From Gluconobacter cerinus (GTDB lineage: Bacteria > Pseudomonadota > Alphaproteobacteria > Acetobacterales > Acetobacteraceae): a DNA stretch of 64,000 bases. The first letter of the stretch is position 1. Each line of letters starts with the position of its first letter. Shown here piece after piece: positions 24,490 to 46,182 of this stretch. The DNA is taken from the NCBI RefSeq assembly GCF_002723935.1, contig NZ_BEWM01000003.1, positions 1-64,000 on the forward strand, written 5' to 3'. The notes beneath the pieces were generated by a model, which was given only the letters and a program-made list of their open reading frames with translations, was not told the DNA's origin and did not search any database. The position numbers and the translations under genes are program-made.

Positions 24490-24564
24490 ATGCGGCATGA
24501 TAATCCATCCGAAAACCGGGCTTTCGGTTACGGGCTTCAGCGCCGCTACAGGGCTGCGCAATGA
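24490..24564 (+). CDS. Possible 24-residue peptide overlapping the ABC transporter start
   Basis: A short frame beginning MRHDNPSENR and ending QRRYRAAQ. Its stop overlaps the start of the ABC transporter gene in the ATGA arrangement typical of translational coupling. A purine-rich GAGGGG lies upstream of the ATG at 11-base spacing, acceptable but not ideal. It is rich in Arg, Asn and aromatic residues. It could be a leader peptide, a small modified-peptide precursor for the TldDE operon that follows, or chance. The only support is position. Confidence 0.35.
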   Translation: MRHDNPSENRAFGYGLQRRYRAAQ

Positions 24565-26351
24565 CGACGCCTGTGACCTCCTTTTCCGTGTCTGCATGGG
24601 AAACCCGAAGCCGCTCCTTCAGGAAAATCTATTTTCTAGGCAAGGTCGTCGGGGCTTTCTTCCTGTCGAAGGACTGGAAAAAAGCCTGGCCGCTCCTGCT
24701 ATTGTGCCTAGGCATCCAGTTCGGTGGCGTTTATCTTTTTGCCATTGAGACTGGCATCAACAAGGCGCTGTTCGATGCGCTTCAGTACAAAAACATTGCG
24801 GTCATCCCCCGCTATGCCATCGAGTTCGTGGCAGTCGGCTCACTCGTCTACAGCCTGACATATTTCGGGGTTTATCTTGAAAACGTTCTCGGGATGCTGT
24901 GGCGCAACAAGATCTCGGTGCTTGTGACGGAAGCATGGCTCAGCAATGACCGCTTTTACTTCATAGAGCGGGCTGAACGCGTTGAAAACGCGGATCAGCG
25001 TATTGCGGAAGACGTCCGGCTCGTTATCAGCGGCGTGTTCGGCATCTTCATGGGAAGCCTTCGGTCCCTGTATTCCATTGCGATTTTTACCGCGTTACTG
25101 GTTCGCAGATCGGCGCCTGTGACATTTCATCTCTTCGGACATGAGATCACAACGCGCTATGATATCGTCCTTGCGGCATATGTGACGTCCATTCTCGCGA
25201 CCGGGATCATTTTTCGGATCGGCCGCAAGCTGACGCGCCTGAACATGCGCCAGCAGCATTATGAAGGCGATCTGCGCTTCATTCTGGTCTCCGTCCGCAA
25301 ACACGCTGAGCAGATCGCCTTCATGGCCCGCAGCCGGATCGAGCATCTGCGGATCGTGACGGCTCTTTCCGCGGTGATGCACAACTATTTTGCGCAGCAG
25401 CGGATGAGCGTCGTCATTTCCTTCGTCATGCAGATTGTCAGCCATTTCCAGCGCGTTCTGCCACTGGTCCTGACCATTCCGCGTTACATGGCCGGTCGCA
25501 TGACCTATGGCGACATCATGCAGACGCAGTCGGCGTTCCAGACGCTGAGCTCTTCCCTGACCTGGCTGATGCAGATGTATCCGATGTATTCCGAGACGAA
25601 TGCATCCTTCGATCGACTGTTTGTCCTGTTTGACGCCATTCAGATGCCCGAGGAGACGGGGATTGCTCTGAGCCACACCGCCTCTGACGACGTTTCCGTC
25701 TCGGGTCTGGTGCTGTCTCTTCCCGGTAAGAGCGCTCCTTTGCTGAAGATCGGGCATTGGGAGATCGCGCCGGGCGACAAATGGGTCATCACGGGTGCTT
25801 CCGGAAGTGGGAAAAGCACTCTTCTGCGGGCCTTGGCGGGGCTGTGGCAGATCGGGGAGGGCGCGATCACCCTTCCGCAGGACGCCCGGATTACGTTTCT
25901 GCCGCAGCTGCCTTATCTGCCGCACGGGACCCTGCTGGAACTGATGCTTCAGACGCAGCCGCCGTCCAAAGAGGCCCGCGAACTTTGTGCGGATCTCCTG
26001 TGCCAGTTCCGCCTCTCTTGGCTCGTGGCCCAGCTGGACATTGGGGGAGACTGGAACCAGCGTCTCTCGCCCGGTGAGCAGCAGCGCTTCGCACTGGCGC
26101 GGGCTTTCGTGTCTCCCCCTGACATTCTCATTCTCGATGAGGCTACCTCCGGGCTGGACCAGAACACGGCAGACGCCCTCTACGCCAATCTTCTGGCACG
26201 CCCTGATCTGACACTCATCAGTGTGGCGCACACCCCCAATATCGTGCGGCTGCATGACAGGCGCCTGCATATCGCGAACGGGACCGCCACCCTTTCTGAA
26301 ACTGCGCCGACATCGCCAGTTTCTCTCCTCTCTTCAAACAGGAAGCTCTGA
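24561..26351 (+). CDS. ABC transporter, fused permease-ATPase of SbmA/BacA/YddA type
   Basis: A 596-residue inner-membrane protein. About 1-370 is the membrane part (DWKKAWPLLLLCLGIQFGGV, then ALFDALQYKN, YLENVLGMLWRNKISVLVTE, FYFIERAERVENADQRIAED), matching the SbmA/BacA-like ABC membrane family. About 390-580 is the ATPase: Walker A GASGSGKST, signature LSPGEQQR, Walker B ILILDEATSGLD, and the H-loop His in SVAHT. SbmA itself lacks an ATPase and imports peptides such as microcin B17; the fused YddA-type relatives are less well characterised. It starts the operon with tldE one base downstream. Confidence 0.88.
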   Translation: MTTPVTSFSVSAWETRSRSFRKIYFLGKVVGAFFLSKDWKKAWPLLLLCLGIQFGGVYLFAIETGINKALFDALQYKNIAVIPRYAIEFVAVGSLVYSLTYFGVYLENVLGMLWRNKISVLVTEAWLSNDRFYFIERAERVENADQRIAEDVRLVISGVFGIFMGSLRSLYSIAIFTALLVRRSAPVTFHLFGHEITTRYDIVLAAYVTSILATGIIFRIGRKLTRLNMRQQHYEGDLRFILVSVRKHAEQIAFMARSRIEHLRIVTALSAVMHNYFAQQRMSVVISFVMQIVSHFQRVLPLVLTIPRYMAGRMTYGDIMQTQSAFQTLSSSLTWLMQMYPMYSETNASFDRLFVLFDAIQMPEETGIALSHTASDDVSVSGLVLSLPGKSAPLLKIGHWEIAPGDKWVITGASGSGKSTLLRALAGLWQIGEGAITLPQDARITFLPQLPYLPHGTLLELMLQTQPPSKEARELCADLLCQFRLSWLVAQLDIGGDWNQRLSPGEQQRFALARAFVSPPDILILDEATSGLDQNTADALYANLLARPDLTLISVAHTPNIVRLHDRRLHIANGTATLSETAPTSPVSLLSSNRKL

Positions 26352-26352
26352 C

Positions 26353-27708
26353 ATGCTTCATCGCAGCGAGATCGTCCGTCTCCGGCAGGACTTTGAACAG
26401 ATCGCAGACCAGGCCTTCACCTTCGGGAAGATAGCGGGTGCCGATGATGTGCAGATTTCCCTGCAGGAAACCGAAAACTGGACCGTGGGCGCGCGCAACG
26501 GGCAGCCGCTTCAGCGGAACAACTCCATCCGGCGTAATGCGCTGATCAGCGTGATTTGCAAGGGCATCCGGGCTTCGGCCGCCACGACGGATTTTTCACC
26601 CGATGCCGTCAGGCGCGCTCTGGATGCTGCGATCGATATCGCCCGGTACGGTGAGCGTGACGATCTTGCAGCGTTTTCCGATGCGTCCGACTACTGCGCC
26701 GATGTCCGCGATCTGGACCTTTTTCATCCGTGGGACATCCGCTATCCGGACGCGCTGGCAATGGCGCTTGAAGCGGAGGAGAGTGCGCTCGCTGTCGATC
26801 CCTGCATCCAACAGACGGAAGGCGCGTCCCTGTGGAGCTCGACCGGACTGTCCTTTCTGGCATCGAGCAAGGGTTTCATGGGCGCCATTCCCTGGACCCA
26901 GCACGGGATTTCCTGCTCCCCCATCGCCATGCGCGATGGGGCACGTCAGGTCGAGGGCTGGTCCAGCAGCGAGCGGAGCGTAGAGCAGCTTGAGACGGCA
27001 GCGGATGTCGGCCGCATCGCGGGTGAACGTGCGCTCGGCGCAATCGGTGGCCAGCAGATCCCGACCGGCACATATCGCGTCCTAATCGATGCGCCCACGG
27101 TCACGGGGCTGCTCGGTGAGTTCATGCGCGCCGTTTCCGGTCCGCTGCTGCGTCAGGGAAACTCGTTCCTTGCCAACACGCTGGGCGAGGCGGTTTTCCC
27201 CGAACATGTCAGCATTTCCGAAGATCCTTTTCGTCTGAGAGGGCGCTCCAGCGCGCCTTATGATGCGGACGGGATCGCCGGGACGGTCCGTAACGTGGTG
27301 GATCGGGGGGTGCTGCGCGGATATTTTCTGGATCTGTATTCGGCCCGCTCGCTGAAGATGGCGCCGACCGGAAATGGCGGACAGACCTACAACATGGAGA
27401 TTGCCAGTGCGCTGACAGCCCCGTCCGATACCCTGCAAGAGATGCTCAGGAAGCTCGATACCGGCCTCCTAATCACCCATATGGCCGGTTCGTCAGACCT
27501 GACCACCGGAACATTTTCCCGCGCGGTACGGGGGGCCTGGGTGAAAGATGGAAAGATTGTGCATCCGGTTGCCGGGGTCACGGTCGCCTCGAACCTGCGG
27601 GAGATGTTCTCGGGTCTCGTCGCGGTCGGTGCGGATACGGTCGAGCGCGGGCCTTTCCGGACGGGATCGTGGCTCCTTGCCGATATGTCCGTCGGGGGGA
27701 GCGTCTGA
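26353..27708 (+). CDS. TldE/PmbA-type metalloprotease subunit
   Basis: A 451-residue cytoplasmic protein of the PmbA/TldD family. N-terminal part ADDVQISLQETENWTVGARN; the conserved C-terminal domain contains GTYRVLIDAPTVTGLLGEFM, MAPTGNGGQTYNMEIASA and a C-terminal FSRAVRGAWVKDGKIVHPVA. It has no HExxxH zinc site, as expected for the TldE partner, whose role is to form the heterodimer with zinc-bearing TldD. In E. coli the pair cleaves the microcin B17 leader and degrades unfolded peptides. It starts one base after the ABC stop, and TldD follows one base after its own stop. Confidence 0.9.
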   Translation: MLHRSEIVRLRQDFEQIADQAFTFGKIAGADDVQISLQETENWTVGARNGQPLQRNNSIRRNALISVICKGIRASAATTDFSPDAVRRALDAAIDIARYGERDDLAAFSDASDYCADVRDLDLFHPWDIRYPDALAMALEAEESALAVDPCIQQTEGASLWSSTGLSFLASSKGFMGAIPWTQHGISCSPIAMRDGARQVEGWSSSERSVEQLETAADVGRIAGERALGAIGGQQIPTGTYRVLIDAPTVTGLLGEFMRAVSGPLLRQGNSFLANTLGEAVFPEHVSISEDPFRLRGRSSAPYDADGIAGTVRNVVDRGVLRGYFLDLYSARSLKMAPTGNGGQTYNMEIASALTAPSDTLQEMLRKLDTGLLITHMAGSSDLTTGTFSRAVRGAWVKDGKIVHPVAGVTVASNLREMFSGLVAVGADTVERGPFRTGSWLLADMSVGGSV

Positions 27709-27709
27709 G

Positions 27710-29185
27710 ATGTCAGGTCTTGCGGAAAATAGCATGAAGAGCAGTCGTATTGCAGGCGCGCGTTCCGCCCTTGTGGAGCGCTACGGGCTGGATGAAGCCT
27801 TTCTGCGGAAGGTTTCTGAAAACGCGTTGGGGAAATGGGGAGATTTCGCGGATATCTACCTCCAGTCCCGTGCGTCCGAAAACTGGCGGATCGAGAACGG
27901 CAAAATCAAGGCGGGGACCTTCGGGATCGATCTCGGATATGGCATGCGCGCGATGCGGGATGCGGAGGTTTCTTTCGCCTCGTCCCAGCGGATTGATCGT
28001 GCCGCCATGGAGATGATGGCGCGCCAGTTGACCGAAGGATATGGCGACGCCACCCCGGTCGCGCCGACTGGTACCATGCAACAAAGCAGTTCCGAACGGG
28101 CGGATCTGTACGGGATTGCGGACCCGCTGCTGTCCTGGAATGCGGATCGCAAGATTGCGCTGCTGCGTTCGATCGACGAGCTCGCCCGTTCGCTGGATCC
28201 GCGGGTCGTGTCGGTCAATGCCAGCGTGCAGGCCTCGCACGAGACAGTTTGGGTCACGCGGCATGACGGGTTTTCGAGCGGCGATATCCGTCCGCTCGTC
28301 AAGCTGGCTGTTGTCGTGACGGTTCTGGCCGATGGTCGCCGTGAAATGTCCGGCTCCGGATTTGGCGGACGTGCCGGATATGAGGTGCTGACCCCTGATG
28401 CGGTCGAAATTCTTGTCCGGAAGGTTGTGTCTTCGGCATTGACGAAGCTGGAAGGCCGCCCCGCGCCCGCAGGCCCGATGACTGTAGTCATTGGCGCAGG
28501 CTGGAACGGCGTTCTTCTGCACGAGGCGGTGGGCCATGGGCTTGAAGGCGATTTCAACCAGCGTGGCAGTTCGGCCTTCTCAGGGCGGATCGGAGAGCGG
28601 ATCGCGGCACCGGGCGTTACGATCCTTGATGATGGCACGGTTCCCGGCGGCCGGGGATCCCTTAACATGGACGATGAGGGTGTCGGGAGCCATCGGACGG
28701 TTCTGGTCGAGGACGGTATCCTTCGGGGATACATGCACGATCTGCTGAGTGCGCGGCAGATGGGCTGTGCCTCGACCGGAAATGGCCGCCGCCAGTCCTA
28801 TGCGTCCCTGCCGCTGCCGCGCATGACGAATACCTACATGGAAGCCGGCACCATGGACCCCGCGGAAATCATCGCATCCGTCGGGCATGGACTTTATGTC
28901 GACAACCTTTCCGGCGGTCAGGTGGACGTCACAAGCGGTCGCTTCGTGTTCGAGGCGTCCGAGGCGTTCCTGATCGAAAACGGAAAACTCAGCGCCCCTG
29001 TTGTGGGTGCTACGATCCTCGGGAACGGTCCGGATACGCTGCGACAGATCAGCATGATCGGCAGCGACCGGATGCTCGATGGTGGCGTCGGCGTGTGCTC
29101 CAAATCCGGTCAGACCCTGCCGGTCGGGGTAGGGCAGCCAACATTGCGCGTGGACGACCTGATCGTGGGCGGGAAGGGATCATGA
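27710..29185 (+). CDS. tldD: TldD-type zinc metalloprotease
   Basis: A 491-residue catalytic partner of TldE. The zinc site HEAVGHGLEGDFNQRG is intact, and the surrounding sequence is close to E. coli TldD: RGSLNMDDEG, LRGYMHDLLSARQMG, STGNGRRQSYASLPLPRMTN, GGQVDVTSGRFVFEASEAFL, GVGVCSKSGQTLPVGVGQPT. TldD has been implicated in PQQ formation in Gluconobacter lacking PqqF (recalled from the literature), so this pair may be the chromosomal TldDE with that function rather than one dedicated to a new pathway. The start at 27710 is one base after the TldE stop. Confidence 0.93.
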   Translation: MSGLAENSMKSSRIAGARSALVERYGLDEAFLRKVSENALGKWGDFADIYLQSRASENWRIENGKIKAGTFGIDLGYGMRAMRDAEVSFASSQRIDRAAMEMMARQLTEGYGDATPVAPTGTMQQSSSERADLYGIADPLLSWNADRKIALLRSIDELARSLDPRVVSVNASVQASHETVWVTRHDGFSSGDIRPLVKLAVVVTVLADGRREMSGSGFGGRAGYEVLTPDAVEILVRKVVSSALTKLEGRPAPAGPMTVVIGAGWNGVLLHEAVGHGLEGDFNQRGSSAFSGRIGERIAAPGVTILDDGTVPGGRGSLNMDDEGVGSHRTVLVEDGILRGYMHDLLSARQMGCASTGNGRRQSYASLPLPRMTNTYMEAGTMDPAEIIASVGHGLYVDNLSGGQVDVTSGRFVFEASEAFLIENGKLSAPVVGATILGNGPDTLRQISMIGSDRMLDGGVGVCSKSGQTLPVGVGQPTLRVDDLIVGGKGS

Positions 29186-29242
29186 CTCCTCTTTTGCACC
29201 GATATCGTCCCGAAAAATCCAGATCCTGAGAAGAGAAGATCC

Positions 29243-29572
29243 ATGAGCACTATCATCACTGTTACACAAGAAAACTTTGACGATGTCGTCCTGAACTCGG
29301 AACTCCCCGTTGTTGTGGATTTCTGGGCGCCGTGGTGCGCGCCCTGCAAGCAGCTGATGCCCATTCTGGATGATGCAGCCGAGACGTATGCGGGGGAAGT
29401 GGTGGTGGCAAAAGTCAACGCCGATGAGAACCCGGAAATCGTCGGCAAATATCATGTTCGTGGCCTGCCCACCGTCGTCCTTTTTTTAGATGGCGAGGAG
29501 CGCGAGCGTTTTGCAGGTCTTCAGACCAAAAGCCGCATTGCTGCTTTCATTGACCGTAACCTCGGGTGCTGA
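29243..29572 (+). CDS. Thioredoxin
   Basis: A 109-residue cytoplasmic thioredoxin, a full-length single-domain protein with the active site VDFWAPWCAPCKQLMPILDD. The second Cys pair position is CAPC rather than the more common CGPC, which can shift redox potential. The cis-Pro loop is VRGLPTVVLFLDG. It lies 57 bp after tldD with GAGAAG before its ATG, and the next gene starts two bases after it. Its place in this operon suggests disulfide reduction for a peptide or protein made or imported here. Confidence 0.92.
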   Translation: MSTIITVTQENFDDVVLNSELPVVVDFWAPWCAPCKQLMPILDDAAETYAGEVVVAKVNADENPEIVGKYHVRGLPTVVLFLDGEERERFAGLQTKSRIAAFIDRNLGC

Positions 29573-29574
29573 CC

Positions 29575-30477
29575 ATGATGCAGTCTTTTCAGGATAATCC
29601 GGCACTCAAGTGCTCCATGCTGCAGAAAGCTCAAGCCTTCCAAGCATCGGGCGATTGGAACAGCCGTCCCGTCTACTGGGATGGGAAAGGTGGAAGTCTG
29701 GTCGGCGGTTTGCTGGGGAGCGATGACCTTGATCAGTGGGTTGAGGAGTCCGGCCTGCCGAAATGGATGGCCCTTTTGCTGGATATGGTCGCAGTGATAC
29801 TGCCTTCCGCTGAAGACGCCAAGGCAGCACAGATTTCTCTGCTGGAAGCGCTGCCGGTGGGTGCGGATCTGAATGCATGTGGCAATGTTGTTCTTGTCCA
29901 TTTCTTGAAAGAGACGGAGACAGATATCGCCTCTCTCTCGGAAAATCACCCTTTGCGCGCTGCCCTGACGGATGTGATGGCGTTGCATGACGCTGAACTG
30001 GCAGGAAAATCGCCTCAGCCTGCGGAATGGCGCAAGGCTCGGTCCGAGGCGATTGCTGCAACAGATCAGGCAGTCCCGGACAGTCCGGAAGCCAAGTTCG
30101 GGGCGGTGATTGAAGCGGCGGCCTGGAATCCGCGGACATCACGCTCTGTCGTGGCAGATACGTTCCGTTCCTGGATCAATGCGCGCCGGGACGCTGCGGT
30201 TCAGCAGAAAGTCGGTGAGCAGGGTCTGATCAGTTTCGAGGAAACCAAGAAGCTTCTCGACAGGATCCACACCGAAGAACGCAAGACAAGAAAAGATCCA
30301 AAAGAATTCATTCATGTTTTTGGAATTCTTGAAGAACGTTACCCCAAAGAACACAAGGATATGATGGATTTTCACCGGATCCAGCATGAAGAAGCCATCA
30401 GACAAAGACAGGCGGCGTTTCAGATTATTATTTCCACGCTCCAGAATTCACAGGATCAGGTCCGATGTACATGCTGA
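29575..30477 (+). CDS. Unrecognised protein in the TldDE operon
   Basis: A 300-residue protein with no domain I recognise. It has no signal peptide or membrane segment. The first half is mixed (ASGDWNSRPVYWDGKGGSLV, LDQWVEESGLPKWMALLLDM); the second half is strongly helical and charged (TKKLLDRIHTEERKTRKDPK, YPKEHKDMMDFHRIQHEEAI), with a C-terminal CTC. The ATG at 29575 follows the thioredoxin stop by two bases; a GTG at 29566 is possible. It could be a binding partner or substrate of the thioredoxin, or a peptide-modifying factor, but nothing in sequence shows which. Confidence 0.7.
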   Translation: MMQSFQDNPALKCSMLQKAQAFQASGDWNSRPVYWDGKGGSLVGGLLGSDDLDQWVEESGLPKWMALLLDMVAVILPSAEDAKAAQISLLEALPVGADLNACGNVVLVHFLKETETDIASLSENHPLRAALTDVMALHDAELAGKSPQPAEWRKARSEAIAATDQAVPDSPEAKFGAVIEAAAWNPRTSRSVVADTFRSWINARRDAAVQQKVGEQGLISFEETKKLLDRIHTEERKTRKDPKEFIHVFGILEERYPKEHKDMMDFHRIQHEEAIRQRQAAFQIIISTLQNSQDQVRCTC

Positions 30478-30530
30478 AGAGCACCAGCTCTTCAAATCGG
30501 CTTCTGGAATTTTTTAAATAAGGACTGAGA

Positions 30531-30555
30531 ATTGCGTGCAACAGGTCCACGCAAT
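30531..30555. promoter_or_regulatory. Inverted repeat just upstream of the TonB receptor ribosome site
   Basis: ATTGCGTG (30531-30538) and CACGCAAT (30548-30555) form an 8-bp inverted repeat with a nine-base spacer, ending 16 bp before the receptor ATG at 30571. It could be an operator or an RNA hairpin affecting access to the GGTGGGG ribosome site. Confidence 0.4.
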
Positions 30556-30570
30556 CATGGTGGGGTTAAT

Positions 30571-32892
30571 ATGAACACTTCGTTGCTAAAGCGAAACGTA
30601 TCACTGTATGTCACGGCAGGCCTCATGGGGGCTTATGCTCCTGCTTACGCAGCAGAGACGGGGGCTTTGCAGAGCAGCTTCAAGCAGGTTTCTGACACAA
30701 TCGTCGTGCTGCCCCGCCAGTCCCTGAAGAAAACTGTTACAGAGATTTCGCTCCGGATGCACGTTCCAGTGACTATTGGGCCGGATGTGCCTGACACGGT
30801 CTATGCGGCGCCGGTAAAGTCCCGGATAGCGGGCGAGGCGCTGGAACAGGCCCTCGTTGGAACGGATTATACCATTTATACGGACAAAGCGGGGGCGGTC
30901 TATATCCAGCCGGCCAACCGGGAAAGCATGAATGTCCGCGCCAAGCGGAACGAGGCCGAAACACAGTACAATGTGGACTCATCTGCGTCTTCGACGAGAA
31001 CTGGCGGCTCAATCCGGGATCTGCCCCAGTCGTCGCGTACGATCACCAGCGCCCTGATTGCAGACCAGCAGATCCAGACCATTGCGGATGCCATGCGAAA
31101 CGCCAGCGGCATGACCGTCAACCGCAGCAACCTTCAGGGCTCCAACAGTTATACGGTTCGTGGATGGACAGCGACCGGCATGACGAACGGCATGCTTGAC
31201 CCTACAGGAGCCATGCAGCCGACGGCGAATGTCGAACGTGTCGAGGTTCTCAAAGGCCCCGCTGCCCTGCTTTCGGGGGGAAACAACATGGGCGGATCCG
31301 TGAATGTGGTCACGAAGAAGCCTGTCGCGGAAAACCTTCTGAATGTTGAGGGAATGTATGGATCCTACAACGATCGGAAATTCACTGTAGACGGCTCCAC
31401 AGCACTGAACCGCGCCAAGACCTGGAGCGCGCGGATTGTTGGCGATTTTGCGGATCAGAAACTTAACTGGGCCGGATATAAAGGCAGAAAAGAATACTCG
31501 GTTGCGCCTTCGGTCAGATTTAAAAATCGTACAATTGACGTAACGGTCGGCGTGGAAAACTCGAAGGTCCGTCAGCCACAGACCGGCTATGCCGTTATTC
31601 CGGCCGTAGGGGCGGATCCCCAGATCGTGACTTACGGCAAAGAATACGGTCCAAATAATCAGGGAATTACGGCGTGGAACACGCGGTGGTTCTATGAAAC
31701 AACCTGGAACATCAATCGCTGGTTGACTTTTGTCAGTCGAAGCCACGTCTCCAATTCGACAACGCTCGTAAACATGTATGGTCCGGCGGCCAATGTCGGG
31801 AGCGGCAACTACCTGATCATGCAGTCCATCGACAAGCAGGTTTCAACACAATATGCCACTGATGACTATTTCAGGGCAAAAATTCATACTTTTATGCTGA
31901 AGCATACGATCTCTGTTGGATTGAATTATTCCGATTATACCGTATCGGATTATGCTCCGAAAGCATCTTTGCTGACGACGTTCACAGTGGCTCCTGTAAA
32001 CAAGTCACCAAATCTTGCGGGCTTTATTCCGGCTACGGATTTTCAGTACAGCCTCGGGTCTCGCCAGCTCGGTTTTTATGGCCAGGATCTGATAGAGTAT
32101 GGGCGTTTCCATTTCTTTGGTGCGGTCCGCAATACCAGCTATCGGTCGTGGGGAAATACATCAAACGCCAAAACCATCAGCAAGCTCTCCCCGATTGCCG
32201 GTCTCGTTGTCGATATCAATAAACAGATCTCCATCTATGCGAGCTGGACAAAGGGATTCACGCCGAACTTCTCGATCGGCACAGACAACAAACTCCTGCC
32301 ATCTCAGACAACCACCAACCTAGAAGCCGGTGTTAAGGGGCAATTTTTCAAGAAGAAGCTGGATGTTGTCGCGTCCGTATACCAGCTGGATCAGAGCAAC
32401 TACCCTATTCTGGCAGCAGGCTCGACCAATCGATATATTGTTCTCCCTGGCATGAGAACGCAGGGTGTGGATATTGATGTCAGTGGTACCATTCTGCCGG
32501 GCTGGCAGGTGTCGGGAAGCTTTACATACGCAGGGTTCCGCTTCCTTTCGAATAGCCTGAATAAGTATATTGTGGCTGCCCAGCCTAAGGTGAAATACAG
32601 CCTCTTTACCAGCTACACACTGCAAAGCGGTTTTCTTAAAAATGCCGGGGTGTCATTCGGGGTATATGGAAATGGCAGCAGTGCTGCGGTTTCATATTAT
32701 CCAAAATACATGATTGGAGCTCAGCATGAAATTGATATGAATTTTCTGTATTCGTACAAAAAGCTGAAATTCAATTTCGGGATCACGAATCTTGAAAACA
32801 GGAACATTTTCGGGGTTACCAGTACTCCGACTTATGTCTCCGTTAGTGGCCCCCGGATGTTCCGCGGTACGATATCCTATTCGTTCTTCTGA
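30571..32892 (+). CDS. TonB-dependent receptor with N-terminal STN domain
   Basis: A 773-residue outer-membrane receptor. Signal peptide (LYVTAGLMGAYAPAYAAE), then an STN-type domain (about 45-125: LKKTVTEISLRMHVPVTI, IAGEALEQALVGTDYTIYTD), a plug (about 150-280: IRDLPQSSRTITSALIADQQ, YTVRGW, VERVEVLKGPAALLSGGNNM), and a barrel ending in YSFF. Together this is the ferri-siderophore/FpvA-FecA layout. No FecI/FecR pair is nearby, so the signalling partner is missing or elsewhere. The ATG at 30571 has GGTGGGG upstream. It follows the TldDE operon by 93 bp on the same strand and may belong to it. Confidence 0.92.
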   Translation: MNTSLLKRNVSLYVTAGLMGAYAPAYAAETGALQSSFKQVSDTIVVLPRQSLKKTVTEISLRMHVPVTIGPDVPDTVYAAPVKSRIAGEALEQALVGTDYTIYTDKAGAVYIQPANRESMNVRAKRNEAETQYNVDSSASSTRTGGSIRDLPQSSRTITSALIADQQIQTIADAMRNASGMTVNRSNLQGSNSYTVRGWTATGMTNGMLDPTGAMQPTANVERVEVLKGPAALLSGGNNMGGSVNVVTKKPVAENLLNVEGMYGSYNDRKFTVDGSTALNRAKTWSARIVGDFADQKLNWAGYKGRKEYSVAPSVRFKNRTIDVTVGVENSKVRQPQTGYAVIPAVGADPQIVTYGKEYGPNNQGITAWNTRWFYETTWNINRWLTFVSRSHVSNSTTLVNMYGPAANVGSGNYLIMQSIDKQVSTQYATDDYFRAKIHTFMLKHTISVGLNYSDYTVSDYAPKASLLTTFTVAPVNKSPNLAGFIPATDFQYSLGSRQLGFYGQDLIEYGRFHFFGAVRNTSYRSWGNTSNAKTISKLSPIAGLVVDINKQISIYASWTKGFTPNFSIGTDNKLLPSQTTTNLEAGVKGQFFKKKLDVVASVYQLDQSNYPILAAGSTNRYIVLPGMRTQGVDIDVSGTILPGWQVSGSFTYAGFRFLSNSLNKYIVAAQPKVKYSLFTSYTLQSGFLKNAGVSFGVYGNGSSAAVSYYPKYMIGAQHEIDMNFLYSYKKLKFNFGITNLENRNIFGVTSTPTYVSVSGPRMFRGTISYSFF

Positions 32893-33096: not shown

Positions 33097-34044
33097 ATGA
33101 TGTCTAAAGATGAGCCGGACCGCATGTCTCTCAGGCGCCTGAACCTGAATATGCTTTATACGCTGGATGCCATATTGAATACGTCGTCGCTGACAGAGGC
33201 CGCCCAGTTAACCCATGTCAGTCAGCCTGCAATCAGTGTTGCTCTGAAAAAGCTGAAAGGTCAGTTGAATGACGATCTCATTATTTATTTAAACGGGAAA
33301 AGGGTTCTTACGCCGCTAGCGCAGGGATTGCGAGCCCGGGTCCGAAAGCTCTTGATCGAGGTCGATGAGACCTTGAATTTTCAGGTTACATTTGATCCGC
33401 AAACGAGCCGGAAAACGTTTAGGCTGGCAGCTTCCGAAAGTCTGGCCACAATGCTGCTTGGGCGTGTTGTTCCCAAAATGCTGTCTGAAGCGCGTGATAT
33501 CAGTGTTGTGGTCTCTACGTTAAACAGGACAACACATGCGGACCTGTTTGAAACAGGAGTAGATCTGATAATTTCACCTGAAGCTCTGGTAGATCACAAG
33601 TTTCCATCAACGGAACTCATGAAAGATCGCCTGTCGTGCATGGTTTGGGATGAGCATCCTTCCATAAAATCCACGATCAGCATGGAGCAGTATCTTGATG
33701 CGCGTCATGCAGCAGTCTCTGAAACATCCAACTTCAATGTCGTGCCGCAGGAAATTTTTTCCAAAATGCGCGTCTCGGCCACTACAGGGCGCTATGGAAC
33801 GCTTGCTGAACTCATTATCGGAACTGATCTGGTGGCCACAGGAAGTAGCTGGGTTCTACAATATTACGCCTCCAGATTCCCAGTAAAGGTTTTGAAATTG
33901 CCATTTGCAACAATGGAAACCCCAATTTATGTGCAATGGCCTTCTCATTTGACTAATGATCCAGCTCATATGTGGCTCATGAGATACCTCAATGATTTCG
34001 CAGAGCCTCACCGAATTGCGCATGCAACGTTCATGAAGAAATAG
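33097..34044 (+). CDS. LysR-family regulator, NodD/SyrM-like branch
   Basis: A 315-residue regulator. HTH about 10-70 (LRRLNLNMLYTLDAILNTSS, LTEAAQLTHVSQPAISVALK), followed by an effector-binding domain (RKTFRLAASESLATMLLGRV). The opening LRRLNLNMLYTLDAIL and the LKKLKGQLNDDLIIY continuation look like the NodD/SyrM group. Two adjacent ATGs start at 33097, with CAGGAG upstream. It lies between the TonB receptor and the PNGase A gene and probably controls one or both. The sequence is more AT-rich than the core genes. Confidence 0.87.
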   Translation: MMSKDEPDRMSLRRLNLNMLYTLDAILNTSSLTEAAQLTHVSQPAISVALKKLKGQLNDDLIIYLNGKRVLTPLAQGLRARVRKLLIEVDETLNFQVTFDPQTSRKTFRLAASESLATMLLGRVVPKMLSEARDISVVVSTLNRTTHADLFETGVDLIISPEALVDHKFPSTELMKDRLSCMVWDEHPSIKSTISMEQYLDARHAAVSETSNFNVVPQEIFSKMRVSATTGRYGTLAELIIGTDLVATGSSWVLQYYASRFPVKVLKLPFATMETPIYVQWPSHLTNDPAHMWLMRYLNDFAEPHRIAHATFMKK

Positions 34045-34085: not shown

Positions 34086-35795
34086 ATGAATAACGGAATT
34101 GTTAAATTATTTCGTATGGCTTTCGCTTGTGCGGGGTTCGCAAGTATTTCGACTGCGTCCCCAGCCATGGCGTGTCAGCCTGGATCACCTGTCGTAATGG
34201 CGTCCAGTCCTGAAATTGGCACACATGCGGTAGCAACGTCTGATTTTCTGGTGCCCAGACCGAATACGACGCCCTGTGAGGTAGAACTGTTTTCCAATAT
34301 TGCCTTTGAAGGCAGCCTTCCAAAGCCGATTGATTACATGCCGCCCCCAAATTGTCCCACGCCATGGGGAAAGATCGTTTTCGAAGCTGATTTTCATATC
34401 AGCACCGGTCAACAATATGATCGTACGGCCCGTGTCAGTCTCGGTGGTGTTAATCTCTTTACGGGAACCACAGCTGAGCCTGGTGCGTCCTTTGCACCGC
34501 TATGGCATGTGGAGCGGGACATAACCGATTATGCGTCCTTACTGCACAAGCCTGTTTCTGGTGAGGCTGAGCTCGTCAATGGTATCGCCGGAGCCAACAA
34601 GGCACGAATAGTCGCTTCCGCCCGACTGGTTTTTTATCCCTTAGAAAGCGGCCAGAAAGCTCCTGATGGACCCAATCTGGTTTTCGCACTGCATCAGCAA
34701 CCTGTTGCTCTGAATGCCAAGGCACCCATTTTCGACAGCACTCAGAGCTTTCCGCGAAACATGACCCGCCTTGCGCTTGATGTTCTGGCTATGCCGCAAC
34801 AGGTGGACGAATTCTGGTACATGTGCATGCCAATGCGGGAAAACGCTGCCGCTGTGACGCCTGATGACAACACCTGCGGTTACCCTTACCGGGAAACCGA
34901 GGTCCGTATTGATGGGAAGCTCGCTGGCGTAGCTCCTGTCTTTCCCTGGATTTATACGGGTGGCCTCAATTCCGTTTTATGGAAGCAGATCCCGGGGATC
35001 GAGACCCTCAATCTCTCGTCTTATCGCATCAATCTGACGCCTTTTGCAGGAACTCTGAATGATGGGAAGCCGCATCATGTCGCTCTCAGTGTCGTTGGGG
35101 TCCGGCGGAGTGAGGTGGTCACGGCGACAGTGCTGGCCTGGCGCGATCCGGTAAGGGAGATCGTCTCCGGACGCCTCATTCGAGGTGATGTCGAACCTGT
35201 CATCATCTCGATAAACAGGAAGTTGCCGTCAAAACCGGATTTTTCTGGGAGGTCTCTCACCGAAGCACACCGGAATATTTCTCTTGAGGGTTTTGTAGAG
35301 ACTTCTAAAGGGCGCGTACAAACAAAAATCACTCAGGAGATATCATTCAATAATACATATTTGACGTCTTATACAGGAAGTAAAATCGACCAGAGTACAA
35401 ACATAGAAACGCATTTTTCTCAATCCGGAGTGGGCTCTCGCGCGAACTACGATACCATCGAGCGTTTTCCCCTTGTCATTCTCCAAGGGAGATCGGGTGC
35501 GGGGAACGACCAGAAGTATAGCTACGATGTTCACCAGGGGCTGGTACGAAACATCAACACGGATTTCCCGTCTTTCAGGAGCAGGGAAATGCAAACATCC
35601 GTAGATGCAAAAGCGGAAATTCCACTTGTTAAAGACGGGACCAGAGCGCTGCCCAGTCTCAGCTCATCAAGGGCAGAATCCAGAATAAACGACAGTGTTG
35701 CAGGCTGCTATGACCGGACGCTCTTCAGTCAAAATCTAACCCTTGTATCGGTTACTGATGGCTGTGCTGCATCAGGTCCATCAGTTCAGCATTAG
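34086..35795 (+). CDS. Exported PNGase A-like protein (peptide N-glycosidase A family)
   Basis: A 569-residue protein. Signal peptide (IVKLFRMAFACAGFASISTA then SPAMAC). The N-terminal 190 residues resemble peptide-N4-(N-acetyl-beta-glucosaminyl)asparagine amidase A, a family typical of plants and fungi: RPNTTPCEVELFSNIAFEGS, PPPNCPTPWGKIVFEADFHI, QQYDRTARVSLGGVNLFTGT, VERDITDYASLLHKP. The middle part contains PWIYTGGLNSVLWKQIPGIE. The enzyme would strip N-glycans from glycoproteins in the periplasm or outside. It sits with a TonB receptor and a family-18 glycosidase-like gene, suggesting use of host or yeast glycoprotein, which is inference. Confidence 0.82.
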   Translation: MNNGIVKLFRMAFACAGFASISTASPAMACQPGSPVVMASSPEIGTHAVATSDFLVPRPNTTPCEVELFSNIAFEGSLPKPIDYMPPPNCPTPWGKIVFEADFHISTGQQYDRTARVSLGGVNLFTGTTAEPGASFAPLWHVERDITDYASLLHKPVSGEAELVNGIAGANKARIVASARLVFYPLESGQKAPDGPNLVFALHQQPVALNAKAPIFDSTQSFPRNMTRLALDVLAMPQQVDEFWYMCMPMRENAAAVTPDDNTCGYPYRETEVRIDGKLAGVAPVFPWIYTGGLNSVLWKQIPGIETLNLSSYRINLTPFAGTLNDGKPHHVALSVVGVRRSEVVTATVLAWRDPVREIVSGRLIRGDVEPVIISINRKLPSKPDFSGRSLTEAHRNISLEGFVETSKGRVQTKITQEISFNNTYLTSYTGSKIDQSTNIETHFSQSGVGSRANYDTIERFPLVILQGRSGAGNDQKYSYDVHQGLVRNINTDFPSFRSREMQTSVDAKAEIPLVKDGTRALPSLSSSRAESRINDSVAGCYDRTLFSQNLTLVSVTDGCAASGPSVQH

Positions 35796-35866
35796 CTTGC
35801 AATATGGCCCGGTAAAATAACTCTGAATGCGTGCTCCAGAGTCTGTAACAATGCGGAATTTTCCTG

Positions 35867-37093
35867 ATGCTGCTTGATTGCTCACTTCTCGACGAGCTGC
35901 CACCCATCGAAAATTCGTCATTTGCGACGCATTTTGATCGTTTTTCGGATGCGAAGCTGCTGCTTCTGGGGGATGCGAGCCATGGGACCGGCGATTTCTA
36001 TACGGCGCGTGCGGCGATTACGAAGCGCTTCATCAGCGAATACGGTCATAAAATTCTGGCAATCGAGGCAGACCCTTGTGACGTGATGGTGCTTGATCGC
36101 TTTGTCCGGCTCGCACTTGGAGAGGTGGACTGGGATAAAGCGTTCCCCCATGCCAATAACTGGGTCTGGAAAAACGAGGAATTCCGCGCCTTGATTTCAT
36201 GGATCAGTGAGTGGAACAGACATTTACCGCTCAAAGAGCGTGTTGCGATCTTTGGTCTGGATTGTCTTAAAACGGCTTCGTCCATGAACGAATTGGTTGG
36301 GTATCTGGAGGGAAGCAACTCCCCTTTGGTTGAACAGGCCCGTCATCTTCGGTCTGGGATGCTGAATTTCAAAGATGATCCTGCCGCATATGCATCGCTG
36401 GCTTCCGATCCATTCCGGATTGAAGCTGCTCAATTGATTTCAGAACTGCTGTCGTCGTTTCGGCATACAGAACCGAAAGCTCCCGGGCCAGAGCGCGAAC
36501 TTTGGTTCAATGCCCTTTTGTGTGGAGTGTCAGTCGTCAATAGCGAGCGCTTCGAACGCTCCGAAGCAAAAGATTTCGTGACAAAGTGGAATGTGCGTGA
36601 CACGCATATGTTCTTAGTTGTTCACGAAATACTGGAAAAATTCGGCTCTGATGCCAGAATTATTATCTGGGCGCATAATAACCATGTTGGTCATGCGGCT
36701 TTCAGCGAAATTGGCTATCGGCGGCACCAGACCAGTCTTGGCGAGCTGCTGAAAAATCAATTCGGAGATGAAGCCTGCCTGATCGGTTTTGGCACTGGCC
36801 AAGGATCGATTTTCGCATCAAGAGGGCGTGGCCATGCTCCTGAAGCTATGAGGATTGGAATACCTATTCCTGAAAGCTGGGAAAATCTCTGTCACAATGT
36901 GTCTTTTCCTCGTTTCCTGATGGACACCACACAGAGGCGTGCCAGACCTTCCGAGTTACGCCCTGGACGCACATTTGGGACTTTCTATCATCCTGAGCGG
37001 GAACGTGACGAATGTTATCTGGAAGCTGACCTTTTCAGGCAGTTTGACGCATGGGTGTGGATTGATGCGACGTCGGCTCTAAATTCGGTATGA
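35867..37093 (+). CDS. Erythromycin esterase-like protein
   Basis: A 408-residue cytoplasmic protein of the erythromycin esterase family (EreA/EreB fold). The N-terminal motif LLLGDASHGTGDFYTARAAI contains the catalytic-type GxxSHGT; AIEADPCDVMVLDRFVRLAL and IIIWAHNNHVGHAAFS supply the usual acid and His regions. Many chromosomal members do not act on macrolides, so the substrate is unknown. It follows the PNGase A gene by 71 bp on the same strand. The ribosome site is weak. Confidence 0.82.
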   Translation: MLLDCSLLDELPPIENSSFATHFDRFSDAKLLLLGDASHGTGDFYTARAAITKRFISEYGHKILAIEADPCDVMVLDRFVRLALGEVDWDKAFPHANNWVWKNEEFRALISWISEWNRHLPLKERVAIFGLDCLKTASSMNELVGYLEGSNSPLVEQARHLRSGMLNFKDDPAAYASLASDPFRIEAAQLISELLSSFRHTEPKAPGPERELWFNALLCGVSVVNSERFERSEAKDFVTKWNVRDTHMFLVVHEILEKFGSDARIIIWAHNNHVGHAAFSEIGYRRHQTSLGELLKNQFGDEACLIGFGTGQGSIFASRGRGHAPEAMRIGIPIPESWENLCHNVSFPRFLMDTTQRRARPSELRPGRTFGTFYHPERERDECYLEADLFRQFDAWVWIDATSALNSV

Positions 37094-37321
37094 GATGGTG
37101 ATCTCCGCTGTTCAGGCTTTTCGAGCCCGCCACTTAGGTGGCCAAAAATCTGGTCTGACGCTGGACGGCATAGCTATTTTGTTGATCTTCTAGTCGTCTG
37201 TTGCTAAGAGAATAGTATTCAGATCGATAAAAGTGCGTCGACCAAAGTACTATTCTGTCATTGACCAGTGCGTGAAATTGAGAAGGACTAGAGGGGGAGG
37301 TGGTTTCGAGCATTCTTCGCG
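37094..37321. other. Intergenic region with inverted repeats
   Basis: Contains a small hairpin GCCAC-TTAG-GTGGC (37129-37142), a possible weak terminator of the esterase-like gene, and a 9-bp inverted repeat AGAATAGTA / TACTATTCT (37209-37217 and 37248-37256). The expected start region of the downstream glycosidase gene lies here but has no usable ATG. Confidence 0.4.
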
Positions 37322-38354
37322 TTGGGGGCAACGTTGTTCTGGAAAGTGGCGTCGGCAGAAGCTAATGCACCTGAGAAGTTGTTTTATCTACTTAATAGCA
37401 CTCAATCCTTCGACTCATTCAGTAAGCATCTGGACAAGATCGATGTCGTGGCCCCCGCTTGGTATTCAGTGGGTGCCGATGGAGTGGTGACCGGCCATGT
37501 AGATAGGCGTGTGCTTGATCTCGCGGTTACTCATAATATAGATGTTGAACCGATTGTCGGTGCCAGTGAGCGGGGGGCGTTGCATGCGCTTTTGAACGAT
37601 CCAAAAGCGCATCGCCTGCTGATTGATCAGTTACTGAAGACGTGTCGAACGTATCATTTCGGTGGGTTTCAACTCGACTTTGAAAATATAGCCCTTACGG
37701 ATCGAAACGCGTTGAGTGCGATGGTGCGGGAAGTAGCTCAGGTCTTTCATACAAACCATCTTATCTTTTCTATCGCGGTGGTGCCGAGTGCTCCGGGCTA
37801 TCCGGGTGAAGGCAAGTTTTCTCGCTGGATGTGGGATTACTGGCGTGGTGCGTACGATATGAAGGCGCTTGGACAAGTAGTCGATTTTATTTCACTCATG
37901 ACCTATGACCAGAATATGCGATGGACGACGCCCGGTCCTGTGGGTGGGTGGGATTGGATGGTAAAAAACGTCAATTATACGATTAGGTTTGTCCCGGCAC
38001 ACAAAATATCATTGGGGATTCCCCTTTATGGTTATCACTGGTCGACGGGCAATCCCGTCCGTCCGGACAAAAGCGAGGCGCCGAATATTACTGTCGATTA
38101 TATCGATGCCGACGAATGGATTCCTTTGGCGAAACGTTCCGGGGCACTGATCCAGTGGGCTTCAAGTGCCCATGAGGCGTTCTTCTGGTTTGAGCGGGAT
38201 GATTTACGAGAATGGGTATTTGTGCCCAACGCACGGAGTACGAAAGAGCGCTATGATTTTGCTGTGGAACGTGGCTTACGTTGGTACATCTGCGTGGGCG
38301 CTTGGGGCCGAGGAGCCTAGTACCTGGGATATGCTACCAGCGGTGCGCCGGTGA
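37322..38354 (+). pseudogene. Frameshifted family-18 glycoside hydrolase-like gene
   Basis: The frame 37322-38320 encodes a GH18-type barrel: FGGFQLDFENIALTD holds the catalytic DxxE-type motif, followed by ISLMTYDQNMRW and SLGIPLYGYHWSTG. The last conserved element, expected as RGLRG.S.W.LG.EDPSTWD, is split. The main frame reads RGLRWYICVGAWGRGA-stop, while the +1 frame reads GTSAWALGAEEPSTWDMLPA to a stop at 38354. Removing one T near 38282 restores it. The N-terminus also lacks an ATG: the signal-like WFRAFFALGATLFWKVASAE begins after an in-frame TAG. It was probably a secreted chitinase- or YaaH-like enzyme. Confidence 0.8.
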
Positions 38355-44844: not shown

Positions 44845-46028
44845 CTATCGCTTTTGGTGATCGAGCAAACCAGTTGGAGGTGAAGCGTTCTCCATAAGAA
44901 GATCGGCCCAGATCTGAGCAAGTTCTTTTCGTCGCTCACGATGAAGAGCACGATTATAGGCTGCTTCCACCCGATTCTTGTTCTGATGCGCCAGCATGAG
45001 GTCGATGATGGCCCTGTCGGACGGGTAGCGTTCGTTCATGATTGACGAGAATGACGCCCGGAATATCCTGCCCGCTGAAGAAGATAACTGAGCGCGTTCT
45101 CACTCATCGGGCGATGCGCCCATCGGTTGTTTGGGAAAACGAGCGGCCCTTTGCCTGTCAGCAGGAAAACTGCCTCGAGAATCTCCCGCGCCTGTCGGGA
45201 AAGGGGGACTTCATGTTCCCGACGCATCTTCATGCGCTCTGCCGGAATCAGCCAGGCGGATCGATCCTCTGAAAGTTCGTGCCATCCCATGGCATGGGCC
45301 TCGCCAGAACGTACAGATGTCAGGGCCAGAAAGCGGAGCGCCAGTAACGTCACAGGGTGAGCCGGGATGGCTTCAACCTGACGGAACAGATCGCGCAGTT
45401 CCCCCAGATCGGTGATGGCGGGCTGACGACCTTTTTTCAGCGGGACGAGTGCCCCCTTGACGATCGCTGCGGGATCCTGCGTGCCCAGACCATGGGCGAT
45501 TCCGAACAGGAAAATCGCGCTCAGTCTCTGGCGTATCCGGCGTGCCGTTTCCCTGGCTCTTCCGGCTTCAATCTTTCTGATGGTCGCGAGCACCATTGGC
45601 GGAGTGATATCGTTAAGATTGAGAGAGCCCAGATCAGGCCAGACGAACCGCTCCAGACTCGTTTCGACGTCTTTCCGGTGGCGCGGAGTCCAGCGCGAAG
45701 CCTGTGAAGCAATCCAGATTTCTCCAACGTTTCTGAGTTGGCGATCTGTCTGGCGGGCTTCTGCCTGACGCTGTTTGCGGGTCAATGAAGGATCCCGACC
45801 GGCACGGAGTTCGCTACGCGCCTGATCCCGGGCGTCTCTGGCTTTTGCGAGCGTCACTTCAGGATAAGTGCCAAATGCAAGGAGCTTCTCCTTGCCACCA
45901 AAGCGATACTTCATACGCCAGAGGCGCGATCCGTTCGGCTGGACGAGAATAAAAAGACCACCTGCGTCTGCAAGCTTGTAAGCCTTGTCTTTCGGGGCAA
46001 GGCGCCGGAGCTGGACATCTGTCAGCAT
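44845..46028 (-). pseudogene. Tyrosine-recombinase integrase (DUF4102/P4 type), frameshifted
   Basis: The N-terminal part (MLTDVQLRRLAPKDKAYKLA, DAGGLFILVQPNGSRLWRMK, YRFGGKEKLLAFGTYPEVTL) is the DUF4102 arm-binding domain; the catalytic core follows with the first Arg in LTSVRSGEAHAMGWHEL. The frame ends after GYSGRHSRQS. The C-terminus (SIMNERYPSDRAIIDLMLAH, VEAAYNRALHRERRKELAQI with the nucleophile Tyr) continues in another frame at 44845-45039. Relatives have HGWR at the break, so the box-II H-x-x-R is lost. The protein is inactive. It reads away from tRNA-Ser, its likely integration site. ATG at 46028 chosen from the family N-terminus. Confidence 0.88.
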
Positions 46029-46030
46029 CG

Positions 46031-46070
46031 ATACCCCCAAGACCAGTCTGATACCCCCATAACTACCCCC
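46031..46070. repeat. Three direct TACCCCC repeats upstream of the integrase
   Basis: ATACCCCC at 46031-46038 and 46051-46058, and CTACCCCC at 46063-46070, all in the same orientation just before the integrase start. Clusters like this often serve as arm-type binding sites for P4-like integrases and their excisionases. Confidence 0.55.
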
Positions 46071-46182
46071 GCATTGCATGCGCTTCAAGGATTGCCACAG
46101 TACGCTCTGGATCGTTAAAATCGTCGGTAACCCGCCGAATTCAAGACCGGATGCGCATTATGGAATGTCATGGAATATATCT

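What the first reader, a model, noticed from the sequence alone, without database searches (positions are those of the whole stretch)
24490..32892. Operon with SbmA-type transporter, TldE, TldD, thioredoxin, an unknown protein and a TonB receptor
ABC, tldE and tldD are separated by one base each, thioredoxin and the 300-residue protein by two, and the TonB receptor follows on the same strand. TldD/TldE proteases process modified-peptide precursors in known systems, SbmA/BacA-type proteins carry peptides across the inner membrane, and the TonB receptor would serve the outer membrane. Together they could make, mature or import a peptide or peptide-metal chelate. Alternatively, TldDE here may be the pair required for PQQ synthesis in Gluconobacter and the rest coincidental. 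No known modification enzyme (radical SAM, YcaO) is visible.
Basis: partly seen in the sequence, partly recalled or inferred. Interest (0 to 1): 0.7.

Follow-up and report, generated by a model that had tools for sequence, protein, structure and literature searches.

The report
Likely peptide import and digestion cassette
A run of genes in an acetic acid bacterium looks like a transferable kit that pulls a peptide through both cell membranes, probably reduces it and chops it up; versions of the kit with swapped digestive enzymes and one protein of unknown function recur in unrelated bacteria.

Summary
They are not a coincidence. Five places found only by an ORF300 profile were a fresh test: 5 of 5 hold this core. 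ORF300 is fused to thioredoxin in 7 of 19 and to an S9 peptidase in one. TldDE (9 of 19) is one exchangeable peptidase; M3, S9, M16, S8 and PepN also occur. ExbB/ExbD, thioredoxin reductase or cysteine-splitting enzymes join in some. The window's TldDE is a second pair: its nearest kin are Burkholderia-group cassette copies, not the genome's own pair, so the PQQ reading fails. The genome has no YcaO match and no precursor was seen. Best reading: uptake and reductive breakdown of a peptide, perhaps cysteine-containing; not synthesis. Substrate, direction, compartment and ORF300's role are unproven. New variant of a known kind.

The parts
24490..24564 (+). 24 codons from an ATG whose stop overlaps the ABC ATG; probably a shifted remnant of the ABC N-terminus or a translational-coupling leader, not a precursor peptide
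   Evidence: G. frateurii has the aligned ATG in frame with the ABC
24561..26351 (+). SbmA/BacA-type ABC importer with fused ATPase (BclA-like layout)
   Evidence: Walker A, signature and Walker B present; nearest solved chain 6tqe
26353..27708 (+). TldE (PmbA), cassette type
27710..29185 (+). TldD, cassette type; HExxxH and the C-terminal Cys kept
29243..29572 (+). thioredoxin, CAPC active site
29575..30477 (+). ORF300, family without a library match; fused to thioredoxin or an S9 peptidase elsewhere
30571..32892 (+). TonB-dependent receptor of the siderophore-receptor group
33097..34044 (+). LysR-type regulator, also beside the cassette in L009, G. frateurii, Sphingomonas and Novosphingobium
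34086..35795 (+). PNGase A-like gene, optional neighbour (also in L009, not beside the cassette in G. frateurii)
35867..37093 (+). erythromycin-esterase-like gene, optional neighbour (also in L009)

Best explanation
A horizontally spread peptide uptake-and-digestion system. The receptor takes a small peptide (perhaps metal-bound) through the outer membrane with TonB energy; the SbmA/BacA-type ABC carries it into the cytoplasm; thioredoxin, with ORF300 as a partner or docking protein, reduces its disulfide or thiol-metal bonds; TldD/TldE then hydrolyses the linearised chain, and other peptidases do or finish this job in relatives. In some relatives released cysteine is split by a Cds1-like or IscS-like enzyme. 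Shown here: family assignments, conserved linkage, two kinds of fusion, conserved catalytic motifs, the kinship of TldDE, and peptidase exchange. Inferred: direction of transport, compartment of each step, a peptide as substrate, its cysteine content, and ORF300's role.
For: Core of TBDR, SbmA-type ABC, thioredoxin and ORF300 in 17 of 19 places; fresh test 5 of 5 places in 4 genomes, though these genomes belong to two families picked because a member had a hit. Thioredoxin-ORF300 in one frame in 7 of 19, ORF300-S9 in 1 of 19. ExbB/ExbD in 8 of 19 (tonB matched in 6 of these and annotated in a seventh, L077), FecI and/or FecR in 7 of 19: both fit uptake. Peptidases of the kinds in my query set: TldDE 9, M3 4, S9 2, M16 1, S8 1, PepN 1 of 19. 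Thioredoxin reductase in 3 of 19; cysteine enzymes in 4 of 19: Cds1-like in L071 and L085 (542 and 517 bits, cut-off 600), IscS-like in L073 and L102. CxxC in 18 of 18 thioredoxins and HExxxH plus Cys in 9 of 9 TldD. BclA, of the same SbmA_BacA-plus-ATPase layout, imports cysteine-rich NCR peptides (PMC5567381, passages).
Against: No substrate is known and no transport was measured. Four places show none of the peptidase kinds searched (L075, L086, L101, L104). 15 of 19 places, the window among them, lack a recognised cysteine-splitting enzyme in the stretch held. L086 has ORF300 beside a distant TBDR but neither ABC nor thioredoxin. In L077 the ABC lies between ORF300 and thioredoxin. The nearest solved receptors take up siderophores, so a non-peptide ligand is possible; the nearest solved ABC (6tqe) is, as I recall, a mycobacterial carrier of several hydrophilic compounds. 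In Gluconobacter, other SbmA-type ABCs also sit beside a TBDR with no thioredoxin or ORF300 match within 1.5 kb (15 of 17 loci), so the ABC-TBDR pair alone is not specific to this system. A crude hydropathy run could not tell compartments apart: thioredoxin scored above the receptor at its N-terminus.
Confidence: 0.67

Rival explanations
1. Metal piracy: the substrate is a thiolate-metal or Fe-S peptide or small protein, imported for its metal; reduction and proteolysis free the metal. It would be a Fus-like protease-associated import system with other parts.
For: FecI and/or FecR in 7 of 19 places and siderophore-type receptors; an M16 peptidase in L078 with PqqL (labelled) and chains 6b03/6brs (FusC, recalled) among its solved relatives; the Fus system joins a TBDT, a TonB-like protein, an M16 protease and an ABC transporter to take iron from ferredoxin (PMC6793856 abstract and section 6; PMC7593965 passages). 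A second SbmA-type ABC/TBDR pair in this genome lies among copper genes.
Against: No chain labelled FusA or YddB among the 60 solved sequences matched by the receptor profile at E up to 1e-8, some of which have generic labels; better M16 matches than PqqL or 6b03 exist for L078; no FecI/FecR match beside the window cassette; the Fus protease is periplasmic (PMC6793856) whereas E. coli TldD/E and TrxA are cytoplasmic (recalled; not tested here).
Confidence: 0.3
2. Self-protection: the cassette imports and destroys a toxic cysteine-rich or modified peptide from plants or competitors.
For: BclA lowers sensitivity to NCR peptides by uptake (PMC5567381 passages); several records with a relative name a plant source (cabbage, mango, tomato, rice, Mimosa); often on plasmids.
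Against: A TonB-driven receptor would bring a toxin in; cysteine-splitting enzymes and FecI/FecR fit nutrition better; sources are given for only some records.
Confidence: 0.2
3. RiPP synthesis or maturation with TldDE as leader peptidase and the ABC and TBDR for export or re-uptake.
For: TldDE matures microcin B17 (quoted in PMC8602642 passages).
Against: No YcaO match in the genome; no RiPP-type gene recognised in the annotated plasmid cassettes; complete TldDE missing in 10 of 19 places (one, L009, holds part of a TldD) while the core stays in 8 of these; the 24 codons at 24490 are explained by a shifted ABC start.
Confidence: 0.05
4. TldDE here serves PQQ synthesis and its neighbours are incidental.
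For: tldD and tldE disruption lowers acid production and bioleaching in G. oxydans B58, and the authors speculate that both serve PQQ (PMC8602642 passages).
Against: Separate TldE/TldD on other contigs group with other Gluconobacter; PqqE lies on C2, not near the window; a close ABC orthologue is in 2 of 26 genomes of the genus.
Confidence: 0.02

Closest known systems
Fus / protease-associated import systems (FusABCD; YddB-PqqL)
   Same: TBDR, TonB-like energiser, peptidase and ABC protein clustered; sporadic distribution; other proteases noted beside some FusA homologues (PMC6793856 section 6)
   Different: receptor profile matches FoxA, FpvA and FhuA chains, none of 60 labelled FusA or YddB; thioredoxin and ORF300 added; peptidases include TldDE, M3 and S9; the word thioredoxin is absent from the main texts of PMC6793856, PMC7593965 and PMC6071955
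BclA / SbmA / BacA peptide importers
   Same: ABC has the SbmA_BacA region plus ATPase; BclA takes up cysteine-rich NCR peptides (PMC5567381 passages)
   Different: the bradyrhizobial bclA locus lacks further transporter parts such as a binding protein (same passages); here an outer-membrane receptor and a digestion module are linked
TldD/TldE protease
   Same: same two-gene family, active-site motifs kept
   Different: an additional pair in genomes that keep a usual pair; one exchangeable peptidase of a cassette
CnoX-type thioredoxin with a helper domain (recalled, not tested)
   Same: thioredoxin domain joined to a second domain
   Different: no sequence link tested; ORF300 matches no library family

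Membership tests
Fus-type protease-associated import system | receptor is a FusA/YddB homologue | tested here: not met
   profile of 14 cassette receptors: 60 solved sequences at E up to 1e-8, headed by FoxA, none labelled FusA or YddB; that both have PDB entries is recalled, and a few labels are generic
Fus-type protease-associated import system | M16 protease of the FusC type | tested here: not met
   no M16 match in the window cassette; M16 in 1 of 19 places, closer to other M16 chains than to PqqL or 6b03
Fus-type protease-associated import system | imports a protein or peptide and processes it | not testable with these tools
   gene content only
SbmA/BacA/BclA importer | SbmA_BacA transmembrane region fused to an ATPase | tested here: met
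   PF05992 4.5e-14, PF06472 3.3e-31, PF00005 5.3e-19
SbmA/BacA/BclA importer | peptide uptake | not testable with these tools
TldD/TldE | three PmbA_TldD domains, HExxxH in TldD | tested here: met
The genome's usual TldD/TldE (the type discussed for PQQ) | groups with other Gluconobacter copies | tested here: not met
   window pair, with G. frateurii's cassette pair, groups with Paraburkholderia and B. cenocepacia cassette copies: TldD 99/97, TldE 100/99
RiPP biosynthetic cluster | modification enzyme and precursor | tested here: inconclusive
   no YcaO match in the genome; radical SAM genes not searched beyond a PqqE query; no precursor seen near the ABC
TonB-dependent siderophore receptor | plug and barrel of the siderophore subfamily | tested here: inconclusive
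   Plug met; TIGR01783 183 bits against a cut-off of 223.5

The most novel reading that the evidence does not exclude
A distinct class of import system for disulfide or thiolate peptides, in which ORF300 is a new thioredoxin partner that receives peptides arriving from the SbmA-type carrier and hands them, reduced, to whichever peptidase the cassette carries; it spreads on plasmids and lets plant-associated bacteria feed on, or disarm, cysteine-rich peptides.
Probability: 0.35. Interest if true: 0.82.

Novelty: new variant of a known kind. Interest (0 to 1): 0.62.

Why it matters
It gives TldD/TldE a setting other than microcin and PQQ processing, ties thioredoxin to TonB-dependent uptake through gene fusions, and gives an uncharacterised protein family (ORF300) a testable place in a pathway. 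If the substrate is a cysteine-rich plant or microbial peptide, it would be a nutrition or defence route carried on plasmids among plant-associated bacteria.

Tried and rejected
PQQ role of the window pair: rejected. Precursor peptide at 24490: rejected, aligned with an in-frame ABC start in G. frateurii. RiPP cluster: no YcaO match. Weak ORF300 hits in G182 (E 5e-4, L008) and G503 (E 3e-4, L089) were dropped from the 19 as chance: no cassette gene matched in the 6 kb of L089, and the longest ORFs of L008 (3.3 kb) read by eye as sulfate-assimilation genes. G577 (L086) was kept as an exception. Rarity: 2 of 299 genomes in the family sample (own genome and G182), 1 of 289 in the class sample (own), 6 of 398 in the phylum sample (own and G503 included). 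The first tree run used wrongly read minus-strand rows and is discarded; redone. In the redone TldD tree the nine cassette rows are not one clade (2 changes; the Sphingomonadaceae and the G629/G739 rows fall with the usual copies, with a long-branch warning); in TldE they are one side of a branch with weak support (75/80). Promoter and terminator scans showed 11 and 14 consensus matches against shuffle means of 5.9 and 10.3 and were not used. PMC3751524 (passages) gave no link of cysteine desulfhydrase with a TBDR operon. PMC5209427 (passages) reports raised expression of microcin-B17-like peptidase genes in Burkholderia terrae near a fungus; whether these are cassette TldDE was not tested. 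Hydropathy as a compartment test did not discriminate. Structure of ORF300: not obtained.

Full report
What is there. The window lies in a genome whose relatives are Gluconobacter (G000, contig C3). Its genes are ABC 24561-26351, TldE 26353-27708, TldD 27710-29185, thioredoxin 29243-29572, ORF300 29575-30477, TBDR 30571-32892 and LysR 33097-34044, all on the + strand with gaps of 1, 1, 57, 2, 93 and 204 bases. The ABC has the SbmA_BacA and ABC_membrane_2 regions plus an ATPase with Walker A, signature and Walker B motifs. ORF300 has no match over cut-off in Pfam, NCBIfam or PADLOC and no PDB sequence better than E 0.32. The same order is found in G. frateurii NBRC 3264 (L010). In an uncultured Gluconobacter assembly (L009) the match starts inside TldD and 2.6 kb of other sequence precedes it up to the contig end. 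A close ABC orthologue (E 0, 84%) is in 1 other of the 26 Gluconobacter genomes searched, the own one counted, so the cassette is accessory.

Conservation outside the genus. Searching plasmids with ORF300 gave 4 records in Sphingomonas, Novosphingobium and Paraburkholderia; B. cenocepacia (L074) was reached through TldE, not ORF300. Searching with relatives of ORF300 gave 55 and 58 records, 53 and 52 of them Burkholderia; the full list of 58 shows the 52 as B. glumae. A seven-row profile found 6 of 398 genomes in the phylum sample; a 14-row profile found 1 of 289 in the class (the own genome), 4 of 150 in the family of G632 and 2 of 99 in the family of G629, centres counted. I examined 19 distinct places; a second B. 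glumae plasmid (L076) was not counted, and 51 of the 58 plasmid records were not fetched. TBDR, SbmA-type ABC, thioredoxin and ORF300 lie together in 17 of 19. The exceptions are L009 (no ABC before the broken TldD) and L086 in G577 (ORF300 beside a distant TBDR only). Novosphingobium's cassette runs across the record start (L072 with L140).

A fresh test. Five places in four genomes (L101-L105) were found only by the ORF300 profile, after the core had been named (note). All five have thioredoxin, an SbmA-type ABC and a TBDR beside ORF300 (5 of 5). The four genomes come from two families searched because a member already had a hit, so they are not a random draw. In L101 thioredoxin and ORF300 lie on the other strand from ABC and TBDR.

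Fusions. ORF300 is in one frame with thioredoxin in 7 of 19 places (L073, L074, L075, L087, L088, L104, L105), and runs in one open frame into an S9 peptidase in L085. In 7 unfused places measured, the gap from thioredoxin to ORF300 is -4 to 5 bases; L085, L102 and L103 were not measured, and in L077 the ABC lies between the two. CxxC is kept in 18 of 18 thioredoxins. This points to a physical partnership; the role of ORF300 is inferred.

The peptidase is exchangeable. TldE and TldD are complete in 9 of 19 places; M3 oligopeptidase occurs in 4 (L071, L072, L102, L103), S9 in 2 (L085, L102), M16 in 1 (L078), S8 in 1 (L077), PepN in 1 (L073). Only these kinds were searched with the query set; none was found in L075, L086, L101 or L104, and L009 has part of a TldD. 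All 9 cassette TldD keep HExxxH and the C-terminal cysteine.

Partners that hint at the job. ExbB/ExbD lie in 8 of 19 places and FecI and/or FecR in 7; MocR-type regulators in 5 (four confirmed by Pfam), the LysR type in 5 and Lrp/AsnC in 4. Thioredoxin reductase occurs in 3. Cysteine-splitting enzymes occur in 4: PALP enzymes of L071 and L085 match L-cysteine desulfhydrase Cds1 best (542 and 517 bits, cut-off 600), L073 an IscS-like enzyme (443 bits, cut-off 548), L102 an IscS/NifS-like domain followed in one frame by a lactamase-fold and a rhodanese domain. In B. glumae, sfnG and msuE (sulfur genes) lie near on the other strand. The cysteine theme rests on these few places and is the weakest inferred step.

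Origin of the window's TldDE. The genome carries four PmbA/TldD genes: the window pair and a separate pair on C1 and C2. In trees the window proteins, with G. frateurii's, group with Paraburkholderia and B. cenocepacia cassette copies (TldD 99/97, TldE 100/99) and then with the G1275 cassette (97/99 and 97/96). The other pair groups with other Gluconobacter: TldD with one (G303), TldE with three. The TldD tree does not unite all nine cassette rows. The five genomes searched whose cassette holds TldDE have four such genes each, and G632, whose cassette lacks TldDE, has two; but G1073 and G1108, whose cassettes also lack it, have four as well, the extra two being distant matches (62 to 94 bits) on other contigs. 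PqqE lies on C2. G. oxydans tldD and tldE mutants are affected in acid production and bioleaching (PMC8602642, passages); those genes are in another strain and were not compared here.

How it most likely works. Receptor and ABC bring a peptide in; BclA, of the same layout, imports cysteine-rich NCR peptides (PMC5567381, passages). Thioredoxin with ORF300 reduces it, TldDE or other peptidases digest it. The receptor profile is nearest to FoxA, FpvA and FhuA chains, with signalling domains of HasR and FecA matched at its N-terminus; Pfam finds STN in 8 of 14 receptors but not in the window's. A metal-bound or siderophore-like ligand stays open. Direction, compartment, ligand and ORF300's role are not shown; my hydropathy run did not separate compartments.

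Comparison and print. The nearest described idea is the Fus-type protease-associated import system (PMC6793856, abstract, section 6 and passages; PMC7593965, passages). It differs in receptor, peptidases and the thioredoxin-ORF300 pair. I found no paper describing this cassette in my searches (open-licence PMC only, listings and starts of abstracts seen). A caution: an SbmA-type ABC beside a TBDR is common in Gluconobacter with none of the other parts within 1.5 kb (15 of 17 loci), one such pair in this genome lying among copper genes. So the novelty lies in the reductive and digestive module, not in the ABC-receptor pair.

Changes made on checking: the hydropathy claim was withdrawn, the extra TldD-like genes of G1073 and G1108 and the TldE route to L074 were added, and the RiPP row was set to inconclusive; confidence in the best explanation went from 0.68 to 0.67 for the lost compartment argument.

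Noticed in passing
G000:C1:861600-865800 (L141:6605-10811): A second SbmA-type ABC with a TBDR beside a heavy-metal P-type ATPase, with a multicopper oxidase and CopB nearby; similar ABC-TBDR pairs in 15 of 17 Gluconobacter loci looked at. Possibly uptake of a copper-binding peptide.
   Followed up: partly
window 34086-38320: PNGase A-like, erythromycin-esterase-like and GH18 genes follow the LysR gene; the first two are also in L009 but not beside the cassette in G. frateurii. N-glycan-removing enzymes beside a peptide uptake system could be meaningful.
   Followed up: partly
L009:1-2600: In the uncultured Gluconobacter assembly the cassette match starts inside TldD and different sequence precedes it; real rearrangement or assembly fault not resolved.
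   Followed up: no
L076:11636-12816: In one fetched B. glumae plasmid the thioredoxin-ORF300 gene is annotated as two pieces, while in another (L075) it is whole.
   Followed up: no
L102:10835-13225: One 796-aa frame matches cysteine desulfurase, metallo-beta-lactamase fold and rhodanese families in turn, an unusual cysteine-sulfur fusion.
   Followed up: no
G1073:C79 and G1108:C46 (L127, L128, L134, L135): Distant TldD/PmbA-like gene pairs (62 to 94 bits) on other contigs of two genomes whose cassettes lack TldDE.
   Followed up: no
window 45036-46088: Phage-type integrase gene, downstream of the cassette.
   Followed up: no
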